From assembly GCA_029834535.1 (NCBI GenBank), contig JAQMWT010000046.1:1-64000 (forward strand): 64,000 bases of DNA. Reading direction: 5' to 3'. This document shows, in pieces, positions 5,228-50,380 of this stretch. This DNA comes from Chrysophaeum taylorii. Lineage: Eukaryota > Sar > Pelagophyceae > Pelagomonadales > Pelagomonadaceae. The translations under genes were made by a program, and so were the position numbers. Position 1 is the first letter of the stretch. The number at the start of each line of letters is the position of its first letter. Below the pieces are notes generated by a model. The model worked only from the letters and a program-made list of their open reading frames with translations, searched no databases and was not told where the DNA came from.

Positions 5228-6790
5228 TTATCCTGCGGCTTGCGAAGCGCCGGTGTTACATATTTTTTTTTTTCGGCAGAAGTGACGCTTCGTCATGTTG
5301 AACTTGGTATGATTCAGGCGAATCTCATTTTCTGCCAGAGCCCCTCGCCTGCGTCGGATCTCGAAGAGCTCGCGTTCGGCGGCGCGCCGAACCACCACCT
5401 CCGCCGCATTCCAAGACGGCTGGAGCCCGCTCCAGCCGTCTTTCGTCGCAGCTGCATTGATGTCGGCGAGAGCTGCAAGCGCGCCGCGAAGTTCGCCGAT
5501 AAGCTTCTCGCAGTATCGCTCCGCGCCCTCCGCCGGCGACTGAGTACTCTTTTGAACCTCCGAAGGCGATGCTGCCTCGTCGCGGGCGCGGGGCTCGATG
5601 ACCACTCTCGTGGTTTTGCCCCACGAGAAATTTGCGCCGTTTCCACAAAAGACTCCCACAGCGCCCCCGCGGATCTTTTTGCGCCAACGCTGGGACGCCG
5701 GACCGACTCGGCCGCAGCACCACGCTACAAAGGCAATGAATCGGCCCCAACACGCTGCTCCACAAGCAAAGGGACCCATCGCCAAGACGGCAACAAAGCA
5801 CAACGGCGGACGCGTGACGGGCGCTTGGAACGCATCGCTCGTAGCGCTGGCTGACCGATCGGCACCTTGGGCCACTGTCTGTTCTGCATGCGCGGCGAGG
5901 TGACCCCAGTCAAGGTTCGTGGACTGCGCCAGCTCCGTCGTCGACATGCAGCGACGCGGCGCCCCTTCCTCGCCCGTCGAAACAGCGTCATCCGCAGTTG
6001 AGCATCGAACACGACTCCTGATTTCCTTTCGGCGACGGCGAACATCGCGCTCATGACGCATAATCCCCCAGCGCGCTGCGTAGAGCCAGAATACAACGAA
6101 GTATCCTGAGAGCGCGAGGACGGAGGCGCAAATTGCGAGGGACTCGATGAGCACGGCAATGGTGAAGAGACCCCTCGATGCGTCCGTGCCTCGCGAAATG
6201 ACTGCGTGATCTCGCGAGCCAGTCTGCGCCGCCAATGCAGGTAATGCTGGTGTTGTGTGCAGACTTTCGCAAGCCTAAACCGCGATCGCGCAAGCGACGA
6301 TCACCACCTCGTTCGCCGTCGACGCCCACGCGGCCCTGCACATCGCAAACCACATCGCCGCCCAGCGGGCCTCCAGCACCGCGTCCAAACGCCCGGCCGC
6401 CTCCTTGTGCACGGAGGCCTTGCGCTTGCGGGAGGGCCTTTTTCTCCGCCGCTTGCGCTTCTTCTTTTTCTTCTTCTTCATCCTCTTCTTTGCTGCCAAC
6501 ATCTCGCTCGACAGCCGTTCGCTAGCGACCACATCGGCGCCCGACTCGCCCATCTCACCGCGACCAGCCGCAGACCCCGTTGCCACGTCTTCCGTCACAC
6601 GTGCTAAACCGGCGCGCTTCTTGTTCTCGCCGCCCCCTTGACGCCGACGCCGACGCCGGAGGCGACGACCGCGGCGACGGCGGCGAGGCTTGGTAACCGT
6701 TCGACGGGGCGTGAGAATGGAGCGCTGAAAGAGCCGCCGCGGGTCGTGGAAATAGTCTGCGAGGTCGCCGTAGACGGCTTGGAGGATCAC
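5228..6790 (-). CDS. Membrane/coiled-coil protein with Lys/Arg-rich N-terminal part; likely one intron
   Basis: Two frames (6790-6275 and 6235-5228) join in phase across a plausible 57 nt intron at 6280-6224 (minus-strand GTTTAG...GGCGCAG). Joined, the protein has a Helitron-helicase-like start (VILQAVYGDLADYFHDP), a long basic region (RRRR and KKKK runs), a hydrophobic span (ANEVVIVACAIA), a clear membrane segment (IAVLIESLAICASVLALSGY), a second hydrophobic span (PLCFVAVLAMGPFACGAACW) and a C-terminal Ala/Arg/Glu coiled coil. The frame opens with GTG and no Met, so the start codon is unknown. Function not recognised. The helicase-derived residues at the front suggest a chimeric transcript formed by transposon capture; this is inference. 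Confidence 0.4.
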
Positions 6791-6909
6791 TTTCTGGCTC
6801 TCACGCCTACCTGATCCTTACTCTCGCGCCTACCTGATCCTTACCCTAAATCGAGGGACAGACAAACAAACAGACAAACAAACAAACATCTGTCGATTAG
6901 TAGTTAAGA
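6690..6909 (-). mobile_element. 5' terminal fragment of Helitron-like copy A
   Basis: Near-identical to the 5' ends of copies at 8179, 33074 and 37971. Contains the terminal motif, the (ACAAAC)-rich run, the tandem GATCAGGTAGGCGCGAGAG unit and the start of the PIF1/Helitron helicase-like frame (LFQRSILTPRR). Similarity stops at about 6690. Confidence 0.8.
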
Positions 6910-8179
6910 TAAGTTCACCTGGTCAGTAAGTTCACCTAGCTCACACCAACTCCTTTGAGCTCGTCGCTCTCGCCTCCGCCAATCTAAGCTGCTTTGGTCC
7001 GCACGCGCCGCCAACCTTTGAGTTTGCTCTAAAAACCCTTTACTCTAAAAACCCCAGTATGTTCACCTGGTCCCAGTTTCACCTGGTCACTCAGGTCACC
7101 TAGTCCCAATCTCAAACCCCAGTAAGTTCACGTGGTCCCAGCAAGTTCACCTATAGTGCGCGTGTAGACGCCGGGAGGGGGCTTATCGGTATTGCGCAGC
7201 ACGTGTGGGGTAGGGTGGAGTCGTCGACCCAGATGAGTATATCTCCTCGGGGATGCCGATCGACAGAGAGCCACGACGTGGCAGAAGCCGGGCTTGGGAA
7301 AGAGGACGCCGACCTCGCGGGGCGTCTGGCCCTGGCTCTTGTTGATCGTTTGGCGTAGGCGGGCCTTAAGGGATACAGGTTGGAGGAGCCTCGGTGACAA
7401 CGACACGATCGATCATGTATCTGGTACCGTTGCAGTGGCCGTGCGACGGGTCGAGATTGCGAAGACCTTAAGCTCGCGCTCAAAGTCAGCACGCCGTTGG
7501 TTGTCAGGGAGTTGAAAACTCTACTGTAAAGAGCGAGGCGTCGTCTTCCGACCCAGCCTAGTCAGCCGAAAAGAACTCCGACGCCTCGTCTCCGGGAAAA
7601 AAAGGCCGCGGTCATGCGCGCGTTGTCAGCATCGACAACATCGTTTCGACGGGGCGTGAGAATGGCGCGCTGAAAGAGCCGCCGCGGGTCGTGGAAATAG
7701 TCTGCGAGGTGGCCGTAGACGGCTTGGAGGATCACTGTCTGGCTCTCGCGCCTACCTGATCCTTACTCTCGCGCCTACATGATCCTTACCCTAAATCGGG
7801 GGACAGCCCGTCAGGCACATCCCTCATACCCCACAAACCCACCCACATCCTTCATGCTCCCCACACACACCCCCCCCTCTTAGCAGTCGACATTTAAAGA
7901 CAGACAAACATCTCTGCATCTCTGCCCGTCAGGCACATCCCTCATACCCCACAAACCCACCCACATCCTTCATGCTCCCCACACACACCCCCCTCTTAGC
8001 AGTCGACATTTAAAGACAAACAGACAAACAAACAAACACACACACCCCCCTCTTAGCAGTCGACATTTAAAGACAAACAAACAAACAGACAGACAGACAG
8101 ACCCCCACACACACCCCCCCCTCTTAGCAGTCGACATTTAAAGACAGACAGACAAACATCTGTTGATTAGTAGTTAGGA
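6910..8179 (-). mobile_element. Helitron-like element copy B, missing its 3' terminal ~75 bp
   Basis: Reading on the minus strand: 5' terminus TCCTAACTACTAAT at 8179, an expanded minisatellite (about 7800-8150), then decayed helicase C-terminal motifs seen in other copies (RAILTPRR-type block, TINKSQGQT motif V, LYVALxR-like motif VI), then the GTAAGTTCACCTGGTCCC tandem tract. It stops at 6910 exactly at the terminus of copy A. The helicase remnant is scrambled between frames, so the element is non-autonomous. Its right flank (CATTTAAAGACAAAC) is itself a minisatellite unit, meaning the copy inserted into related repeat DNA. Confidence 0.75.
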
Positions 8180-30873: not shown

Positions 30874-33074
30874 CAAGTGCAGGCCAGTAAGTTCACCTAG
30901 TCCCAATCTCTAACCCCAGTAAGTTCACCTGGTCCCAGTAAGTTTCATATAAGTTCACCTTGTCAGTAAGTTCACCTAACTCACACCAACTCCTTTGAGC
31001 TCGTCGCTCTCGCCTCCGCCAATCTAAGCTGCTTTGATCCGCACGCGCCGCCAACCTTTGAGTTTACTCTAAAAGCCCTTTACTCTAAAAACCCCAGTAT
31101 GTTCACCTGGTCCCAGTTTCACCTGGTCACTCAGTTCACCTAGTCCCAATCTCAAACCCCAGTAAGTTCACGTGGTCCCAGCAAGTTCACCTATAGTGCG
31201 CGTGTAGACGCCGGGAGGGGGCTTATCGGTATTGCGCAGCATGTGTGGGGTAGGGTGGAGTCGTCGACTCAGAAGAGCATATTCTCGGGGTTGCCGATCG
31301 ACAGAGAGCCACGTAGAGCTGGACGTGACAGAAGACGGGCTTGTGGGCAAGAGGACGCGGACCTCGCGGGGCGTCTGGTCCTGGCTCTTGTTGATCGTTT
31401 GGCGTAGGCGGGCCTTAAGGGATACAGGTTGGAGGAGCCTCGGTGACAACGACACGATCGATCTGGTACCGTTGCAGTGGCCGTGCAACGGGTCGAGGTT
31501 GCGAAGACTTTAAGCTCGCGATCAAAGTCAGCATGCCGTTGGTTGTCAGGGAGTTGAAAACTCGACTGTAAAGAGCGAGGCGTCGGCTTCCGACCCAACC
31601 TAGTCGGCCGAAAAGAACTCCGACGCCTCGTCTCCGGGAAAAAAAGGGAGCGGTCATGCGCGCGGCGTTGTCAGCATCGACAACATCGTTTCGACGGGGC
31701 GTGAGAATGGCGCGCTGAAAGAGCCGCCGCGGGTCGTGGAAATAGTCTGCGAGGTCGCCGTAGACGGCTTGGAGGATCACTGCCTGGCTCTCGCGCCTAC
31801 CTGATCCTTACTCTCGTGCCTACCTGATCCTTACCCTAAATCGAGGGGCAAACAGACACAAAAACGGGCAAACAGACACATCCTTCATGCCCCCCACACA
31901 CACCCCCCTCTTAGCAGTCCTAACTACTAATCGACAGATGTTTGTCTGTCTGTCTGTTTGTTTGTTTGTCCCTCGATTTAGGGTAATGATCAGGTAGGCG
32001 CGAGAGTAAGGATCAGGTAGGCGCGAGAGCCAGACAGTGATCCTCCAAGCCGTCTACGGCGACCTCGCAGACTATTTCCACGACCCGCGGCGGCTCTTTT
32101 AGCCAGCGCGCCATTCTCACGCCCCGTCGAAACGATGTTGTCGATGCTGACAACGCCGCGCGCATGACCGCTCCCTTTTTTTCCCGGAGACGAGGCGTCG
32201 GAGTTCTTTTCGGCCGACTAGGTTGGGTCGGAAGCCGACGCCTCGCTCTTTACAGTCGAGTTTTCAACTCCCTGACAACCAACGGCATGCTGACTTTGAT
32301 CGCGAGCTTAAAGTCTTCGCAACCTCGACCCGTTGCACGGCCACTGCAACGGTACCAGATCGATCGTGTCGTTGTCACCGAGGCTCCTCCAACCTGTATC
32401 CCTTAAGGCCCGCCTACGCCAAACGATCAACAAGAGCCAGGACCAGACGCCCCGCGAGGTCCGCGTCCTCTTGCCCACAAGCCCGTCTTCTGTCACGTCC
32501 AGCTCTACGTGGCTCTCTGTCGATCGGCAACCCCGAGAATATGCTCTTCTGAGTCGACGACTCCACCCTACCCCACACATGCTGCGCAATACCGATAAGC
32601 CCCCTCCCGGCGTCTACACGCGCACTATAGGTGAACTTGCTGGGACCACGTGAACTTACTGGGGTTTGAGATTGGGACTAGGTGAACTGAGTGACCAGGT
32701 GAAACTGGGACCAGGTGAACATACTGGGGTTTTTAGAGTAAAGGGCTTTTAGAGTAAACTCAAAGGTTGGCGGCGCGTGCGGATCAAAGCAGCTTAGATT
32801 GGCGGAGGCGAGAGCGACGAGCTCAAAGGAGTTGGTGTGAGTTAGGTGAACTTACTGACAAGGTGAACTTATATGAAACTTACTGGGACCAGGTGAACTT
32901 ACTGGGGTTAGAGATTGGGACTAGGTGAACTTACTGGCCTGCCCTTGTCGACCTTTAAAGACAAACAGACAAACCACACACACACACACCCCTCTTAGCA
33001 GTCGACATTTAAAGACAAACAGACAAACAAACAAACAGACAAACAGACAAACATCTGTCGATTAGTAGTTAGGA
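30874..33074 (-). mobile_element. Helitron-like element (copy C) inside the hAT, itself split by copy D
   Basis: On the minus strand it starts TCCTAACTACTAATCG (33074) and ends GGCCTGCACTTG (30874). It lies between hAT codons: host G^T on the minus strand, no duplication. Net of copy D it is 1171 bp. It has the 5' minisatellite, the helicase remnant (ILQAVYGDLADYFHDP, RAILTPRRNDVVD, TINKSQ) and the 3' GTAAGTTCACCTGGTCCC tract. Decayed, non-autonomous. Confidence 0.85.
31918..32947 (+). mobile_element. Helitron-like element (copy D), opposite orientation, nested in copy C
   Basis: Starts TCCTAACTACTAATCG at 31918 and ends GGCCTGCCCTTG at 32947 (1030 bp). It interrupts a minisatellite unit of copy C: left flank ...CTTAGCAG, right flank TCGACCTTTAAAGAC, restoring CTTAGCAG^TCGACC. 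Target again G^T. Because C and D are near-identical and opposed, the locus forms an inverted repeat with ~1 kb arms. Confidence 0.88.
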
Positions 33075-36435: not shown

Positions 36436-36699
36436 CGTCGATGATGATGATGCTGATGATACTACCACCCCGCGCGCGCGACTTTTTTTTTCGAGGGAGA
36501 AAGAGGGAGAGAGAACGCGCGCCGCTCTTCTGACGAATCATTTTGGAAAGGAGCCCAACAAAATCGAGACCCCTTGAGGATATTATGACTGTTGTTGTTA
36601 TGATGATGATGATGATGATTGCTTCGGTGCGGTAAACGGCGGGAGGGCAGAAGGTACTGTATGGCGAAGTTGTCACTTGGGACTGATGAAAATGTGTCC
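36436..36699. other. Gene 3' flank with low-complexity DNA
   Basis: Contains a (GAT)n run, a T-run and a second (GAT)n run up to the start of the copia LTR. No gene seen. Confidence 0.5.
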
Positions 36700-38149
36700 T
36701 GCAGAGCATCTAGCAAGCAGTGGTAAGTCACCTCTCGGGAAACCATCCCGTCTCATCGTGACTGGGAAACCATCCCGTCTCATCGTGAACGTCTGGCAGG
36801 TTAATTCGGGGAATGAAAGGTATGTTCCCTATATCCTCAGAACACGACAGGCGGCATCTAGCAGTGTAGTGTAGTAGCACTACAAGTGCAGGCCAGTAAG
36901 TTCACATATCTCTAACCCCAGTAAGTTCACCTGGTCCCAGTAAGCTCACCTAGTCCCAATCTCTAACCCCAGTAAGTTCGGAGTAAGCCCACTCGTGCTC
37001 ACACCCACTCACCCCACTCTCCTTCGAGCTCGTCGCTCTCGCCTCCGCCAATCTAAGCTGCTTTGATCCGCACGCGCCGCTAACCTTTGAGTTTACTCTA
37101 AAACCCCCAGTAAGTTCACCTGGTCCCAGTAAGTTCACCTGGTCACTATATTCACCTATCCCAATCTCAAACCCCAGTAAGTTCACCTGGTCCCAGTATG
37201 TTCACCTACAGTGCGCGTGTAGACGCCAGGAGGGGGCTTATCGGTATTGCGGAGCACGTGTGAGGTAGGGTGGAGTCGTCGACTCAGAAGAGCATATTCT
37301 CGGGGTTGCCGATCGACAGAGAGCCACGTAGAGCTGGACGTGACAGAAGACGGGCTTGTGGGCAAGAGGACGCCGACCTCGCGGGGCGTCTGGCCCTGGC
37401 TCTTGGTGATCGTTTGGCGTCGGCGGGCCTTACGGGATACAGGTTGGAGGAGCCTCGGTGCCAACGACACGATCGATCATGTATCTGGTACCGTTGCAGT
37501 GGCCGTGCGACGGGTCGAGATTGCGAAGACCTTAAGCTCGCGCTCAAAGTCAGCACGCCGTTGGTTGTCAGGGAGTTGAAAACTCGACTGTAAAGAGCGA
37601 GGCGTCGGCTTCCGACCCAACCTAGTCGGCCGAAAAGAACTCCGACGCCTCGTCTTCGGGAAAAAAAGGCCGCGGTCATGCGCGCGTTGTCAGCATCGAC
37701 AACATCGTTTCGACGGGGCGTGAGAATGGCGCGCTGAAAGAGCCGCCGCGGGTCGTGGAAATAGTCTGCGAGGTCGCCGTAGACGGCTTGGAAGATCACT
37801 GTCTGGCTCTCGCGCCTACCTGATCCTTACTCTCGCGCCTTGATCCTTACCCTAAATCGAGGGACAGACAGACAGCCCACACACACCCCCCCCTCTTAGC
37901 AGTCGACATTTAAAGACAGACAGACAGACAAACAGACAAACAGACAAACATCTGTCGATTAGTAGTTAGGACACGAGAACGGTTAAGTATATAGTGCTAC
38001 ATACCTTGGGACGGGCTATAGACCATGATGATGAGCGTAGGCAACAAATCAGAGGACTATTAGATTGTGTAAAAAGGAAGAAGAAGGGTAAGGAAGAGAT
38101 CACGTTCTCAACGGACGGATAAGGGTAAGAGGCAGCAGATTTCTCTGCA
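36700..38149 (-). repeat. 3' LTR of copia element 1 (split by a Helitron-like copy)
   Basis: Begins TGCAGAGCATC and ends TTTCTCTGCA on plus; about 361 bp once the 1089 bp Helitron insertion is set aside. Homologous in the same orientation to 50067-50380. Includes a local 27 bp duplication (GGGAAACCATCCCGTCTCAT). Confidence 0.85.
36883..37971 (-). mobile_element. Helitron-like element (copy E) inside the copia LTR
   Basis: 1089 bp; minus-strand start TCCTAACTACTAATCG (37971), end GGCCTGCACTTG (36883). The other LTR supplies the empty site: GAACTA^CACGAGAA at about 50203 against GCACTA[element]CACGAGAA here, so there is no target duplication and the minus-strand target is G^T. It keeps helicase C-terminal traces (RAILTPRRNDVVD, TITKSQGQT) in scattered frames. 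Insertion is younger than the copia element. Confidence 0.9.
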
Positions 38150-40783: not shown

Positions 40784-43700
40784 TCAATCCTGTAAAGGAT
40801 TGTCGTCAGAGGCATGATGCATACCGAGTAGAGAGCGAAAGGTGGAGAACTCAGCAGCAAGTGGCTTAGTAAAACCATCCGCCACGTTCAGCTTGCCGGG
40901 AACATGATGGACTCGTATTTTCTGAAGCGATATGTACTCACGAATCTTAAACCATCTAGTCGACAGTGCCTTGGATTGAGAGGACCCATCTGGGTTATTA
41001 GAGGTGTGAACAGCCGCAGCATTGTCAGACAAGAGGGGTAGGCTTCTGATGAAGCGCATTTCTTCAGCAATTGGGTTGTCATTGTCATCAAAGTCAACAG
41101 GGTCAGCGGTGTTCTCACCATTAGCATTATTGACGTAGAAGGTGGGGTTGACAACAAAGGAGAGTTCCAACAGCAGCTTGCGTAGCCAAACGGCTTCATC
41201 AACACAAATGCTGAGGGCAATCAACTCAGCTTCGTGAGTTGAGCAGGAGACAATCGGTTGAAGTTTGCTTTTCCAACCAATAAGGCAGTTGAAAAGATAG
41301 AAGACAAACCCGGTGGTAGATTTCCTGTCTTCCTGTGCTAAGGAAGGGGCATTGTCAGCGTTAACCATGGCAACTAAGGGGTCAAACTGTCCAGTAGATA
41401 CATCCTGTGGTTGGTAGTCGACCACAGTGGATAGATCAATTCGATTAGCGGAGACAGTGCGAAGGTGAGCTTCAATGGCATTACCTTTAGGGTGAAACCA
41501 GAGGCGAAGTGAGCGGTTTTCCGGCTTCTTGAGGTAGCGAAGTAAATGCTCTAGCATTTGAACGTGAACATATGTGGGTGCATGCATACCACGCGAACAT
41601 CTGCCCAAGGCTTGCGAGAAGTCAGGTCTGCAGGCAACTTGCATGAACACCAGCTTGCCAAGGAGGGTGGCAAAGTGCGAGTTGATGTACAACTCGGTTT
41701 CAGTGCTGGGAGTGCCATCTTTATACTTGAAGGACGATGACATAGGATATTTGAGTGGGGTCAGTTGCTGCAAGACTGGGTGATCAGCGAAGAGTTCATC
41801 CAGCTTGGCTTGCACATCCAGAGAAATGGAGCCGTCAGATGTGCGACACACACGCATGCCTAGGAGGGTATGGACAGGTTCAAACTGCTCTACAGCATAC
41901 CGTTTGTGGAGGGCATCCTGTAATTCTGTACGAAGAGGGTCGTCATTGGACACAATAACAATGTCGTCTACAGACAGACTGCATACGACGAACTTAGCAT
42001 GTGCGGATACTCGAGCATATAGGCAAGAGTCCGAATGCAGGCGTTTGTAGCCAAGGCTACGGAAGAAGCCGTCTATCTCTTTGTTCCAAAGGGATGGTGA
42101 TTGCCGAAGTCCATAAAGTGACTTCAGCAGTTTCGGTAGACGTCGGCCCTTGTACTTAGCGTCATCGGGGTCGATAAGCTTGATGCCGTCTGGTAACTGA
42201 ACATAGACATTGGCATCGATGTCAGACTGAACGAAGGCGTTCGGGACGTCTGCATGGTAGACAGGCAATTGCTTGTATGCTGCAATAGCTAGTAGTACCC
42301 GGATTGCGGTCATGGTGGCCATGGGGCTGAAGGTACCAAAGAAATCGGCGCCAAGAGATGCTAGGAAGCCACGTAGTACGAGGCGAGCCTTGTGCTTAAC
42401 GTATTTGCCTGCAGAGTCGGTTTTAATCTTCAGCACCATCTTGCTGTCAATAGGACGAGAGACACCGTCGGGTAAGGAAAGTTTGAAGCAGCCAAAGCGG
42501 ATAATGTCGTGGAGTTCCTTGGCGATGGCCTTGAGGTAGGCGTGCCTGTTTTCAGGCGACAAACCGTGGAGGCACTTAAGTTTATATTCGTCAATGGAAA
42601 CGTCCGCTTCTTGGACCTTATATTCGTCAGGACCAACAATGGCTGGTGAATTATAGTTTAGCGACGTTGCGGTCGAGGCAGTGTGCGCAACTTCGGGATA
42701 AGCGGAAACAGCGTCAGTAGGAGTAGTAGGGGCAGATTCCAGTTGGATATGGATAGTAGGGTCGGTACGTAAGACCTGGGTGATAAACTCTGTAGAGACC
42801 AGAAGGTATTCCTCCAAGTCAGCCAGAGATGCAGAAGTAGCGCCAAACTCGGATGAGTTGTGATCAATAAAGCTGGTCGGCGCCAGGTACGTAAGTGCAT
42901 ATTGTAAGGAAGAAGTGCCGAAGGCAGCAGCGTGTTCAGTGAACGCAGATAAAAGGGGCTGAGGAATAGGGCACGCAGGTGAACCATCAGCAGTTAAAAA
43001 GGTTGCAGCTGGGATGCTGGATGCGCACTTGGCGTGGGCGAAGTAACCATCGACGTGCGGGTAGCGGGCAAGTAAGTCAGTGCGCAACGGGAGAAGAAGA
43101 CGAGCTAACAACGCATGTTCCCCCTCTGAGCAGATAGCAGACCAGAGGATACCACCACGGAGATGAAGGGCGGAGAGGGCGGGAGACTTGAACGTAAGAA
43201 AGTGGTGGCGAAGATCCCAGCGGAAATCGGCGAGCTTGCCACCAGCGGCTTTGTAAGCACCAATAGTAGACGCTTGTAACCGGGCTCGGATAGTTTTCAT
43301 AGAAGTGGCCTTGCGAGTGTTAGGCTGTTTGGAACCTGGGACAAGAATGAGATCATCTTGTGCAAAAAGGTCTTTGTAAGAAGGAAGCAAGGGCGGTGAC
43401 ATAGAGCCAGATTCGTCGGCGAGAGCGTCAGAAGAGGGAGAAGAGGCAGGAGTAGGGGACGAAGAAGGAGCTGAAGGAGGTGGGGAGTGCCCCCTCTGAG
43501 GATGAGGAGTCCTTGTCCCCCTCTGAATGACATGGTCTTGGATAGTGGTGTGGGGTGTGAGCGAGAAAGGCGCGGGAGGAGCGTGAGGCGGAGGAGCTAG
43601 TTCAGGATCAGGAGTAGGATGCTGCAACATGTAGAGGAATTGCAGCTTGGACGAAACACGAATTTGTCCGTTTTCAGGGTTGAGGACGACGTCAGCGAGA

Positions 43701-43804
43701 TGGTCGACGCGTGGGGAGACGAGCGGGTTTTGCGCGTTGGCGCAACAGAGATACAGATATTTGCGGCGGCACGGTTCCCACTTGTGGTGTTCATGGGGCT
43801 CCAA
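40784..43804 (-). CDS. Reverse transcriptase and RNase H region of copia element 1 (fossil)
   Basis: Copia-type RT signatures: ADVPNAFVQSDI, KSLYGLRQSPSLWNKEI and CSLSVDDIVIVS. RNase H motifs follow (STHEAELIALSICVDEAVWL; LSTRWFKIREYISLQKIRVH; LNVADGFTKPL). Order and motifs place it in Ty1/copia. The N-terminal third is Pro/Ser-rich. Confidence 0.9.
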   Translation of the reverse strand: MEPHEHHKWEPCRRKYLYLCCANAQNPLVSPRVDHLADVVLNPENGQIRVSSKLQFLYMLQHPTPDPELAPPPHAPPAPFSLTPHTTIQDHVIQRGTRTPHPQRGHSPPPSAPSSSPTPASSPSSDALADESGSMSPPLLPSYKDLFAQDDLILVPGSKQPNTRKATSMKTIRARLQASTIGAYKAAGGKLADFRWDLRHHFLTFKSPALSALHLRGGILWSAICSEGEHALLARLLLPLRTDLLARYPHVDGYFAHAKCASSIPAATFLTADGSPACPIPQPLLSAFTEHAAAFGTSSLQYALTYLAPTSFIDHNSSEFGATSASLADLEEYLLVSTEFITQVLRTDPTIHIQLESAPTTPTDAVSAYPEVAHTASTATSLNYNSPAIVGPDEYKVQEADVSIDEYKLKCLHGLSPENRHAYLKAIAKELHDIIRFGCFKLSLPDGVSRPIDSKMVLKIKTDSAGKYVKHKARLVLRGFLASLGADFFGTFSPMATMTAIRVLLAIAAYKQLPVYHADVPNAFVQSDIDANVYVQLPDGIKLIDPDDAKYKGRRLPKLLKSLYGLRQSPSLWNKEIDGFFRSLGYKRLHSDSCLYARVSAHAKFVVCSLSVDDIVIVSNDDPLRTELQDALHKRYAVEQFEPVHTLLGMRVCRTSDGSISLDVQAKLDELFADHPVLQQLTPLKYPMSSSFKYKDGTPSTETELYINSHFATLLGKLVFMQVACRPDFSQALGRCSRGMHAPTYVHVQMLEHLLRYLKKPENRSLRLWFHPKGNAIEAHLRTVSANRIDLSTVVDYQPQDVSTGQFDPLVAMVNADNAPSLAQEDRKSTTGFVFYLFNCLIGWKSKLQPIVSCSTHEAELIALSICVDEAVWLRKLLLELSFVVNPTFYVNNANGENTADPVDFDDNDNPIAEEMRFIRSLPLLSDNAAAVHTSNNPDGSSQSKALSTRWFKIREYISLQKIRVHHVPGKLNVADGFTKPLAAEFSTFRSLLGMHHASDDNPLQD

Positions 43805-43955
43805 TAGGAGGTAACATTCAGCGCCAAAATCTTGAGCATATCGTGTTGGGGAGTGTTGAGTTGGTTGTAGAGTAGCTGTTGCGGACTCAGAATAGCATGA
43901 TGAATGCGCTCGAGCGTGGCGTTCGGGAGAAGGTTATAGCTTTGAACGGTGTGTA

Positions 43956-50052: not shown

Positions 50053-50066
50053 CTGGGCCCATAACC
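50053..50066 (-). promoter_or_regulatory. Primer-binding site of copia element 1: initiator tRNA-Met anticodon half
   Basis: CTGGGCCCATAACC directly abuts the LTR on its internal side. This equals the anticodon stem-loop of many eukaryotic initiator tRNA-Met genes, so the transcript would pair with a half-tRNA, as Drosophila copia does. The same string recurs at the matching place in element 2. Confidence 0.8.
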
Positions 50067-50380
50067 TGCAGAGCATTAGCAAGCAGTGTTAAGTCACCTG
50101 GGTAACCATCCCGTCTCATCATGAACGTCTGGAAGTATTTAATTCGGGGAATGAAAAGGTATGTTCCCTATATCCTCAGAACACGACAGGCGGCATCTAG
50201 AACTACACGAGAAAGGTAAAGTGTATAGTGCTACATACCTCGGGACGCGCTAGACCATGATGATGAGCGTAGGCACAAATCAGAGGACTATTTGATTGTG
50301 TAGAAAGGAAGAAGAAGGGTAAGGAAGAGATCACGTTCTCAACGGACGGATAAGGGTAAGAGGCAGCAGATTTCTCTGTA
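50067..50380 (-). repeat. 5' LTR of copia element 1
   Basis: Starts TGCAGAGCATT and ends TTTCTCTGTA on plus; 314 bp. Direct repeat of the LTR at 36700-38149 and provides the Helitron empty site. Confidence 0.85.

What the first reader, a model, noticed from the sequence alone, without database searches (positions are those of the whole stretch)
36883..37971. Helitron-like family with exact ends fixed by an empty site inside the same window
The two copia LTRs are direct repeats, one with and one without the insert. Comparing GCACTA[insert]CACGAGAA with GAACTACACGAGAA sets both boundaries. The element reads TCCTAAC...GCACTTG on the minus strand and inserted at G^T with no duplication. The same ends and target appear at 30874-33074 and 31918-32947. 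Known Helitrons start TC, end CTRR and enter A^T; here the end is CTTG and the target G^T, with no obvious 3' hairpin, so this looks like a variant lineage.
Basis: partly seen in the sequence, partly recalled or inferred. Interest (0 to 1): 0.85.

Follow-up and report, generated by a model that had tools for sequence, protein, structure and literature searches.

The report
Abundant Helitron variant ending CTTG
The insert is a small, non-coding passenger of a rolling-circle jumping gene (a Helitron) whose ends occur about three thousand times in this genome; the class is well known, but this branch ends in a slightly unusual sequence, lacks the usual 3' hairpin and has its own landing-site rule.

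Summary
In detail: 36883-37971 is a precise 1,089-bp insertion, on the minus strand TCCTAAC...GCACTTG, in one of two copia LTRs. Each end has about 3,000 matches genome-wide. Longer relatives in the same genome carry these ends and a Rep-helicase protein that matches bat Helraiser (E = 9e-185) with HUH and two-tyrosine motifs. It is a non-autonomous Helitron, nearest Helitron1 by protein, cut down from a coding element; by its ends it misses three classical features (CTRR, near-terminal hairpin, A^T).

(1) The target is not G^T: the upstream base is A 39%, G 37%, T 23%, C 1.5%; the downstream base is T in 98%. (2) TAA starting 7-10 positions downstream is a further target signal. (3) CTTG ends are in print (Pleurotus HELPO2; some Helraiser products). 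(4) A sister element here ends CTAG behind a GC hairpin. (5) The filled LTR also has 16 extra bases three bases from the junction; two cleaner empty sites confirm the ends.

About 15% of exact 3' ends directly abut another copy's 5' end. Verdict: real, a variant of a known kind, low to moderate interest.

The parts
36883..37971 (-). Non-autonomous Helitron copy, 1,089 bp, TCCTAAC...GCACTTG
37949..37971 (-). 5' end (left terminal sequence) TCCTAACTACTAATCGACAGATG
   Evidence: 2,950 matches genome-wide at up to 3 mismatches, control 0; shared with coding element A
36883..36906 (-). 3' end (right terminal sequence) ...CTTACTGGCCTGCACTTG
   Evidence: shared with coding element A
37840..37971 (-). 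5' 132 bp, 92% identical to coding element A (L028), with GTTTGTCTG-type microsatellite
37443..37812 (-). Remnant of the helicase-coding region, 81% identical to element A
37212..37443 (-). Second remnant of the helicase-coding region of element A, 83% identical
36920..37212 (-). Array of degenerate copies of the subterminal motif GGTGAACTTACTGG; no hairpin near the 3' end
   Evidence: (self matches)
36864..36879 (.). 16 extra bases in the filled LTR, 3 bases beyond the 3' junction, absent from four other LTR copies (window 50162-50263, L035, L043, L083)
36698..38147 (.). Filled copia LTR (interrupted by the insert), limits as matched to the other LTR
50065..50378 (.). Second copia LTR, empty site (junction near 50200-50206)
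40784..43933 (-). copia reverse transcriptase ORF (RVT_2) of the host retrotransposon
30874..33074 (-). Second Helitron copy, split by a nested copy
31918..32947 (+). Third Helitron copy, nested in the second at AGCAG^TCGAC
6700..8179 (-). Two decayed copies (5' ends at 8179 and 6909); no matching 3' end found

Best explanation
The insert is a non-autonomous (passenger) rolling-circle transposon of the Helitron superfamily, nearest Helitron1 by its coding partner though not canonical in its ends. It arose by internal deletion from a relative of coding element A. It keeps the 5' end, two pieces of the helicase region and the 3' end, and is moved in trans by the Rep-helicase of element A or a close relative. 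Inferred steps: the HUH/two-tyrosine nuclease nicks the 5' TC end, the strand is peeled off to the CTTG end, a head-to-tail circle forms, and it is inserted in front of a T with a TAA motif starting 7-10 positions into the downstream flank. Shown here: ends, number of ends, no target duplication at the usable empty sites, target preference, homology to coding copies, head-to-tail neighbours. Inferred: trans-mobilisation, circles and order of steps, by analogy with Helraiser.
For: Same 5' and 3' ends on coding copies. At least 40 PF14214 matches in this genome, 39 over the curated cut-off; several rows are pieces of one element and the list may be capped. PF05970 and PF21530 in the same elements. 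Helraiser match E = 9.2e-185 with GLPHAHILLILD and the KYxxKYxYKGHD two-tyrosine motif aligned. Insert collinear with element A at both ends and over two helicase pieces. Empty sites without duplication and without a gap at the junction for two other copies and for the nested copy. 3' neighbour T in 2,419 of 2,469. 363 direct CTTG|TCCTAAC junctions.
Against: No hairpin at the 3' end of the insert or of the three A copies folded, CTTG instead of CTRR, and an upstream base not restricted to A. The closest coding relative held is only 81-83% identical over the helicase pieces, so the true partner may be an element not fetched. The 5' end of element A was found in L028, L030 and L034 but not in L024 or L026. 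No activity was measured.
Confidence: 0.95

Rival explanations
1. It is a Helentron/Helitron2-type (HINE-like) element, the other eukaryotic rolling-circle group, which has non-CTRR ends and inserts at T-rich sites.
For: Non-CTRR 3' end, microsatellite next to the 5' end and insertion before T are reminiscent of DINE/HINE elements (passages of PMC4067079; PMC3627910).
Against: The coding relative L024 matches Helraiser over 1,045 residues at E = 9e-185; the sister element ends CTAG behind a hairpin and starts TC. No endonuclease domain was found by Pfam (E up to 0.001) in the three frames of two elements scanned. Asymmetric terminal inverted repeats were not searched for, and no Helentron protein was compared.
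Confidence: 0.04
2. It is a CACTA (EnSpm) or other cut-and-paste element; the focal flank reads CACTACAAG.
For: The junction GCACTA/CAAGTGC in the window looks like a CACTA end.
Against: CACTA is flank, not element: of the 56 other 3' flanks listed one (L006) has it. There are no terminal inverted repeats by eye and no 2-3 bp duplication at the usable empty sites, and the coding copies encode Rep-helicase.
Confidence: 0.01
3. It is not mobile: a satellite or tandem repeat unit spread by recombination.
For: About 15% of exact 3' ends directly abut another copy (363 of 2,469). The pair in L037 is 97% alike.
Against: 61 of 93 distinct 3' flanks in hand are not element sequence; precise empty sites exist. 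In the L025 array the units are 86-93% identical (adjacent pairs 91% and 86%), below the median of 96% among the 16 copies compared, so unequal crossing-over alone does not explain that array.
Confidence: 0.01

Closest known systems
Helraiser / Helibat (Myotis lucifugus Helitron1)
   Same: Rep HUH + two-tyrosine + PIF1-like helicase protein; TC 5' end; T downstream; no duplication; AT-rich 3' side of the target; head-to-tail circle junctions (passages of PMC4778049). Some Helraiser products from donors without the hairpin or right end terminate in CTTG next to a T.
   Different: Normal Helraiser ends CTAG after a hairpin 11 bases upstream and inserts at A^T; here the 3' end is CTTG without hairpin, the upstream base is A, G or T, and a localised TAA signal lies downstream.
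HELPO2 of Pleurotus ostreatus
   Same: Rep-helicase Helitron whose 3' end is CTTG (passages of PMC4289320).
   Different: HELPO families are said to have AT insertion specificity and a subterminal hairpin.
Maize HelA-type Helitrons
   Same: 5' consensus TC[TC][CA]TA[CT]TA... resembles TCCTAACTACTA; adjacent copies with a G/T junction described (passages of PMC2267711).
   Different: Maize elements end CTAG after a hairpin and normally sit at A^T.
Element B of the same genome (L038, L040)
   Same: 5' end (seen in L038 only) like that of A apart from one base that also varies among A copies; 3' end GGCCTTACTAG resembles GGCCTGCACTTG.
   Different: CTAG end with a GC hairpin about 37-57 bases from the end in L038, which is farther than the canonical 10-15; about 66% nucleotide identity to A.
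Helentron/DINE-1 and Helitron2
   Same: High-copy non-coding rolling-circle elements with microsatellites; tandem arrays are known among Helitrons (passages of PMC4067079).
   Different: Different protein group, asymmetric or subterminal inverted repeats, TT targets (passages).

Membership tests
Helitron1 (canonical Helitron) | Rep (HUH, two tyrosines) fused to PIF1-like helicase in coding partner | tested here: met
Helitron1 (canonical Helitron) | 5' end TC | tested here: met
   70 of 71 5' ends with 30 bp of flank (one TT), found with a pattern that includes TC and allows 3 mismatches
Helitron1 (canonical Helitron) | 3' end CTRR | tested here: not met
   CTTG in 111 of 112 (pattern includes CTTG, 3 mismatches allowed); a genome-wide count of CTRR variants of this end was not made; the sister element B has CTAG
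Helitron1 (canonical Helitron) | Hairpin 10-15 bp from the 3' end | tested here: not met
   last 60 bases of the insert and of three A copies fold no better than mononucleotide shuffles, z +0.5 to +1.8; two B copies z -1.7 and -3.0
Helitron1 (canonical Helitron) | No target duplication | tested here: met
   no gap at the junction for the L025 minus copy vs L031 and L058, the L032 minus copy vs L022, and the nested window copy. A 1-base T duplication cannot be told from none
Helitron1 (canonical Helitron) | Insertion between A and T | tested here: not met
   downstream T 98%, upstream A only 39%
Helitron1 (canonical Helitron) | No terminal inverted repeats | tested here: met
   ends TCCTAACTAC / GCACTTG are not complementary (by eye)
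Helitron1 (canonical Helitron) | Rolling-circle transposition through circles | not testable with these tools
   only the indirect sign of 363 direct head-to-tail junctions
Helentron / Helitron2 | Asymmetric terminal inverted repeats and hairpins at both ends | tested here: inconclusive
   3' end has no hairpin; the 5' end was not folded and inverted repeats were not searched for
Helentron / Helitron2 | Protein groups with Helitron2 | not tested
   no tree was built; the strong match to Helraiser speaks for Helitron1
CACTA (EnSpm) | CACTA terminal inverted repeats and 3-bp duplication | tested here: not met

The most novel reading that the evidence does not exclude
A Helitron lineage that has dropped both the 3' hairpin terminator and the A^T rule. 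It replaces them by an array of GGTGAACTTACTGG-type subterminal repeats ending in CTTG and by a two-part target, not-C^T followed at a near-constant distance by TAA. Its ends have spread to about 3,000 places this way, next to a sister element in the same genome that keeps CTAG and a hairpin. If so, how Helitrons end without a hairpin, and how their nuclease reads the target, could be compared between natural siblings.
Probability: 0.35. Interest if true: 0.5.

Novelty: new variant of a known kind. Interest (0 to 1): 0.32.

Why it matters
In Helraiser the 3' hairpin acts as the stop signal; removing it lowers transposition and makes truncated or read-through 3' ends more frequent (PMC4778049, passages). 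Here a hairpin-less Helitron has about 2,500 exact copies of one 3' end, so something else must mark the end. Sister elements with and without hairpin share one genome, which makes the question testable. The TAA-at-a-distance signal is a sharper description of what was reported for Helraiser as AT-richness on the 3' side.

Tried and rejected
Rejected: G^T as the target rule; CACTA and satellite readings (rival list). A Helentron reading was considered because of the CTTG end and set aside on the protein evidence, without a tree.

Tried without result: the organism was not identified. Among the 120 listed protein relatives of element B (of 3,217 found) identity is at most 48%, and a paper search for algal Helitrons (a guess at the host) gave nothing that could be tied to this genome. 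I looked by eye for a resemblance between the downstream target motif and the element's own 5' end (TCCTAACTACTAA). TAA occurs in both but at other distances, so I do not claim it.

Error found and corrected: the junction scans used a best-match option that skips some copies (it missed the focal 3' end). One search repeats them by plain counting and is the one cited for sample counts; its raw totals still count places held in overlapping loci twice, the distinct-flank totals do not. Searches use the 24 paired copies plus the focal one, so they miss some; three of the 24 (L027) lie in a stretch nearly identical to L025 and are not independent. The own-sequence filter let a few element-derived flanks through; one search uses a 12-mer filter instead. 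The stretches were chosen from the listing after I had seen, whose listing overlaps it; the genome-wide count does not depend on that choice. No genome-wide control at another distance was run for the AA pattern; the control is the other positions of the sampled flanks.

Full report
WHAT IS THERE. The window (64 kb, contig C46 of an unnamed 70.8-Mb genome in 697 contigs) holds a copia retrotransposon on the minus strand (RVT_2). One of its LTRs (about 36698-38147) is interrupted by 1,089 bp; the other (50065-50378) is not. Read on the minus strand the insert is TCCTAACTACTAATCGACAGATG...CTTACTGGCCTGCACTTG. A second copy (30874-33074, minus) is split by a third (31918-32947, plus). Two decayed copies lie at 6700-8179.

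EMPTY SITES. Joining the flanks of the focal copy and comparing with the other LTR and with LTR copies in L035, L043 and L083 gives CTCGTG^TAG, but the filled LTR also has 16 extra bases starting 3 bases beyond the 3' junction. It leaves the 5' boundary firm and the 3' boundary with only 3-4 bases of support in that LTR pair. Of the 25 paired copies joined (three of them in L027, nearly identical to L025), better sites were: the L025 minus copy against L031 and L058 (TTTTGA^TGTATG, no gaps, 94% over 120 bp and 97% over 79 bp); the L032 minus copy against L022 (GCTGG^TAGTCG, no gap at the junction, one elsewhere, 95% over 109 bp); and the nested window copy against uninterrupted element sequence (AGCAG^TCGAC). 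One further copy (L006) had a related but poorly matching site (77%) that lacked four bases at the junction. Five of the 25 found no match, and the remaining ones matched element copies or tandem neighbours, not an empty site. No duplication is seen in the usable sites; a one-base T duplication cannot be excluded by this method.

ENDS. Genome-wide, 2,950 matches to the 5' 23-mer and 3,013 to the 3' 24-mer at up to 3 mismatches, controls 0 and 8. At about 1 kb each this would be roughly 4% of the assembly (estimate; end counts include fragments and coding copies). In the sequence held, by plain counting: 74 5' ends and 113 3' ends, coding copies and some doubly held places included; of those with 30 bp of flank, 70 of 71 start TC and 111 of 112 end CTTG (one CTTA, the first of two adjacent repeats of the end in L028). 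The search patterns contain these letters and allow 3 mismatches, so strongly different ends would not be seen.

TARGET. Exact 3' ends followed by T: 2,419; by another base: 50. Exact 5' ends preceded by A 502, C 19, G 841, T 292. 363 exact CTTG|TCCTAAC junctions account for much of the G. Their pattern differs in length from the others, so subtractions are approximate. Without them A is 39%, G 37%, T 23%, C 1.5% of 1,291. So the rule is not-C^T, neither A^T nor G^T. In 61 distinct non-element 3' flanks, T is at +1 in 59, A at +10 in 39 and A at +11 in 38; AA at +10/+11 is in 23 of 61 against 9% at positions +14 to +29 (p = 2e-9), and TAA starts at +7 to +10 in 36 of 61 against 4 of 61 at +15 to +18. 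These windows were chosen after seeing the first logo. Genome-wide 843 of the 2,419 T-flanked ends have AA at +10/+11, about 41% of those that are not direct tandem junctions. Part of the 843 are insertions into the family's own sequence (for example TCGACATTTAA, seen repeatedly in the listing). The upstream side shows no C at -1 (0 of 28) and few at -3 (1 of 28); a C excess at -6 (14 of 28) was not followed up.

CODING RELATIVES. PF14214 gives 40 listed matches, 39 over the cut-off, some of them pieces of one element. Several are long elements. A (L028 1871-8651, 6,781 bp; also L024, L026, L030, L032, L034, of which L024 and L026 are 99.5% identical stretches and not independent) has the insert's 5' end in L028 and L030, and with one base changed in L034; no 5' end was found in L024 and L026. 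It ends ...ACTTACTGGCCTGCACTTG|T in L024, L026, L032 and L034; L028 has the end duplicated, and in L030 it is altered and followed by C. B (L038 minus, 6,775 bp, whose 5' end abuts a passenger copy; L040, where that part is missing) ends GGCCTTACTAG|T with a GC hairpin; only two distinct flanks of this end are in hand, both starting with T. The 3' ends of A and B look homologous (GGCCT..ACT[T/A]G), so CTTG reads as a one-base change of CTAG; this is my inference. The long A frame of L028 has Helitron_like_N and PIF1; Pif1 2B domains are in the second frame of L028 and in B. L024 ORF 4971-8183 aligns to Helraiser residues 435-1374 at E = 9.2e-185 with identical GLPHAHILLILD and KYIHKYVYKGHD against KYLFKYIYKGHD. 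L028's frame is split (1,868 + 293 aa), so not every copy is intact.

THE INSERT AS A DELETION PRODUCT. Insert 1-132, 160-529, 529-760 and 1052-1088 match element A in order (92, 81, 83 and 87%); the middle pieces lie in the helicase region (tblastn hit over 119 residues, 45%, frame decayed). Between 760 and 1052 are degenerate copies of the subterminal motif. Pairwise identity, gaps not counted, of 16 passenger copies (those of 900-1,150 bp, L027 left out) has median 96%, range 86-99%. The 81-83% identity to A means that the direct parent was a relative of A, not one of the A copies held.

TANDEM COPIES. 363 direct junctions equal about 15% of exact 3' ends. Five distinct junctions in hand have spacers of 3, 4, 5, 6 and 6 bases, which put the CTAA of the resident copy's 5' end near the preferred positions; these look like insertions just upstream of a resident copy (inference). 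In the L025 array units are 86-93% alike, below the median between copies, while the pair in L037 is 97% alike. Direct junctions may thus have more than one origin: read-through, circle concatemers, or separate insertions at G^T as discussed for maize (passages of PMC2267711).

AGAINST WHAT IS KNOWN. CTTG ends: HELPO2 in Pleurotus, in a family set described with hairpin and AT specificity (passages of PMC4289320); Helraiser products from donors lacking hairpin or right end, and maize as cited there (passages of PMC4778049). AT-rich 3' side: reported for 1,751 Helraiser insertions, 46 of them not at AT. Head-to-tail circles. A hairpin 10-15 bp from the end and AT insertion are given as canonical also for an active wheat Helitron (passages of PMC13286980); Fusarium Helitron2-type elements have other ends and targets (passages of PMC5148889). 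What I did not meet in the passages read is the combination of a CTTG end without hairpin, free choice of A, G or T upstream, and a TAA signal at a set distance. That makes it a variant of a known kind. Papers were read only as passages found by term; whole texts were not read.

Noticed in passing
36864-36879: Sixteen extra bases in the filled copia LTR, three bases from the Helitron 3' junction, absent from four other LTR copies; filler made at insertion or an independent indel.
   Followed up: partly
6700-8179: A 3'-truncated copy abuts the 5' end (TCTTAAC) of another inside the subterminal GGTGAACTTA motif, perhaps an alternative 3' end.
   Followed up: no
L037 3174 (minus), the same place as L016 169: TTAGCAG followed by TCCTG and then a whole copy: the five bases look like the remnant of a nearly complete deletion of an earlier copy.
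   Followed up: no
C496:58261, C605:4328, C58:52855, C472:20641: A second, weaker class of Helitron_like_N hits (37-64 bits), possibly another rolling-circle lineage in the same genome.
   Followed up: no
L034 3277-3949: A 69-base (23-codon) tandem repeat inside the open frame of element A, of different length between copies.
   Followed up: no
L024 and L026 (C268 and C6): 10-kb stretches 99.5% identical with the same insertions: unmerged haplotypes or a recent duplication in the assembly.
   Followed up: no
28 host 5' flanks: C at position -6 in 14 of 28 upstream flanks; may be chance.
   Followed up: no
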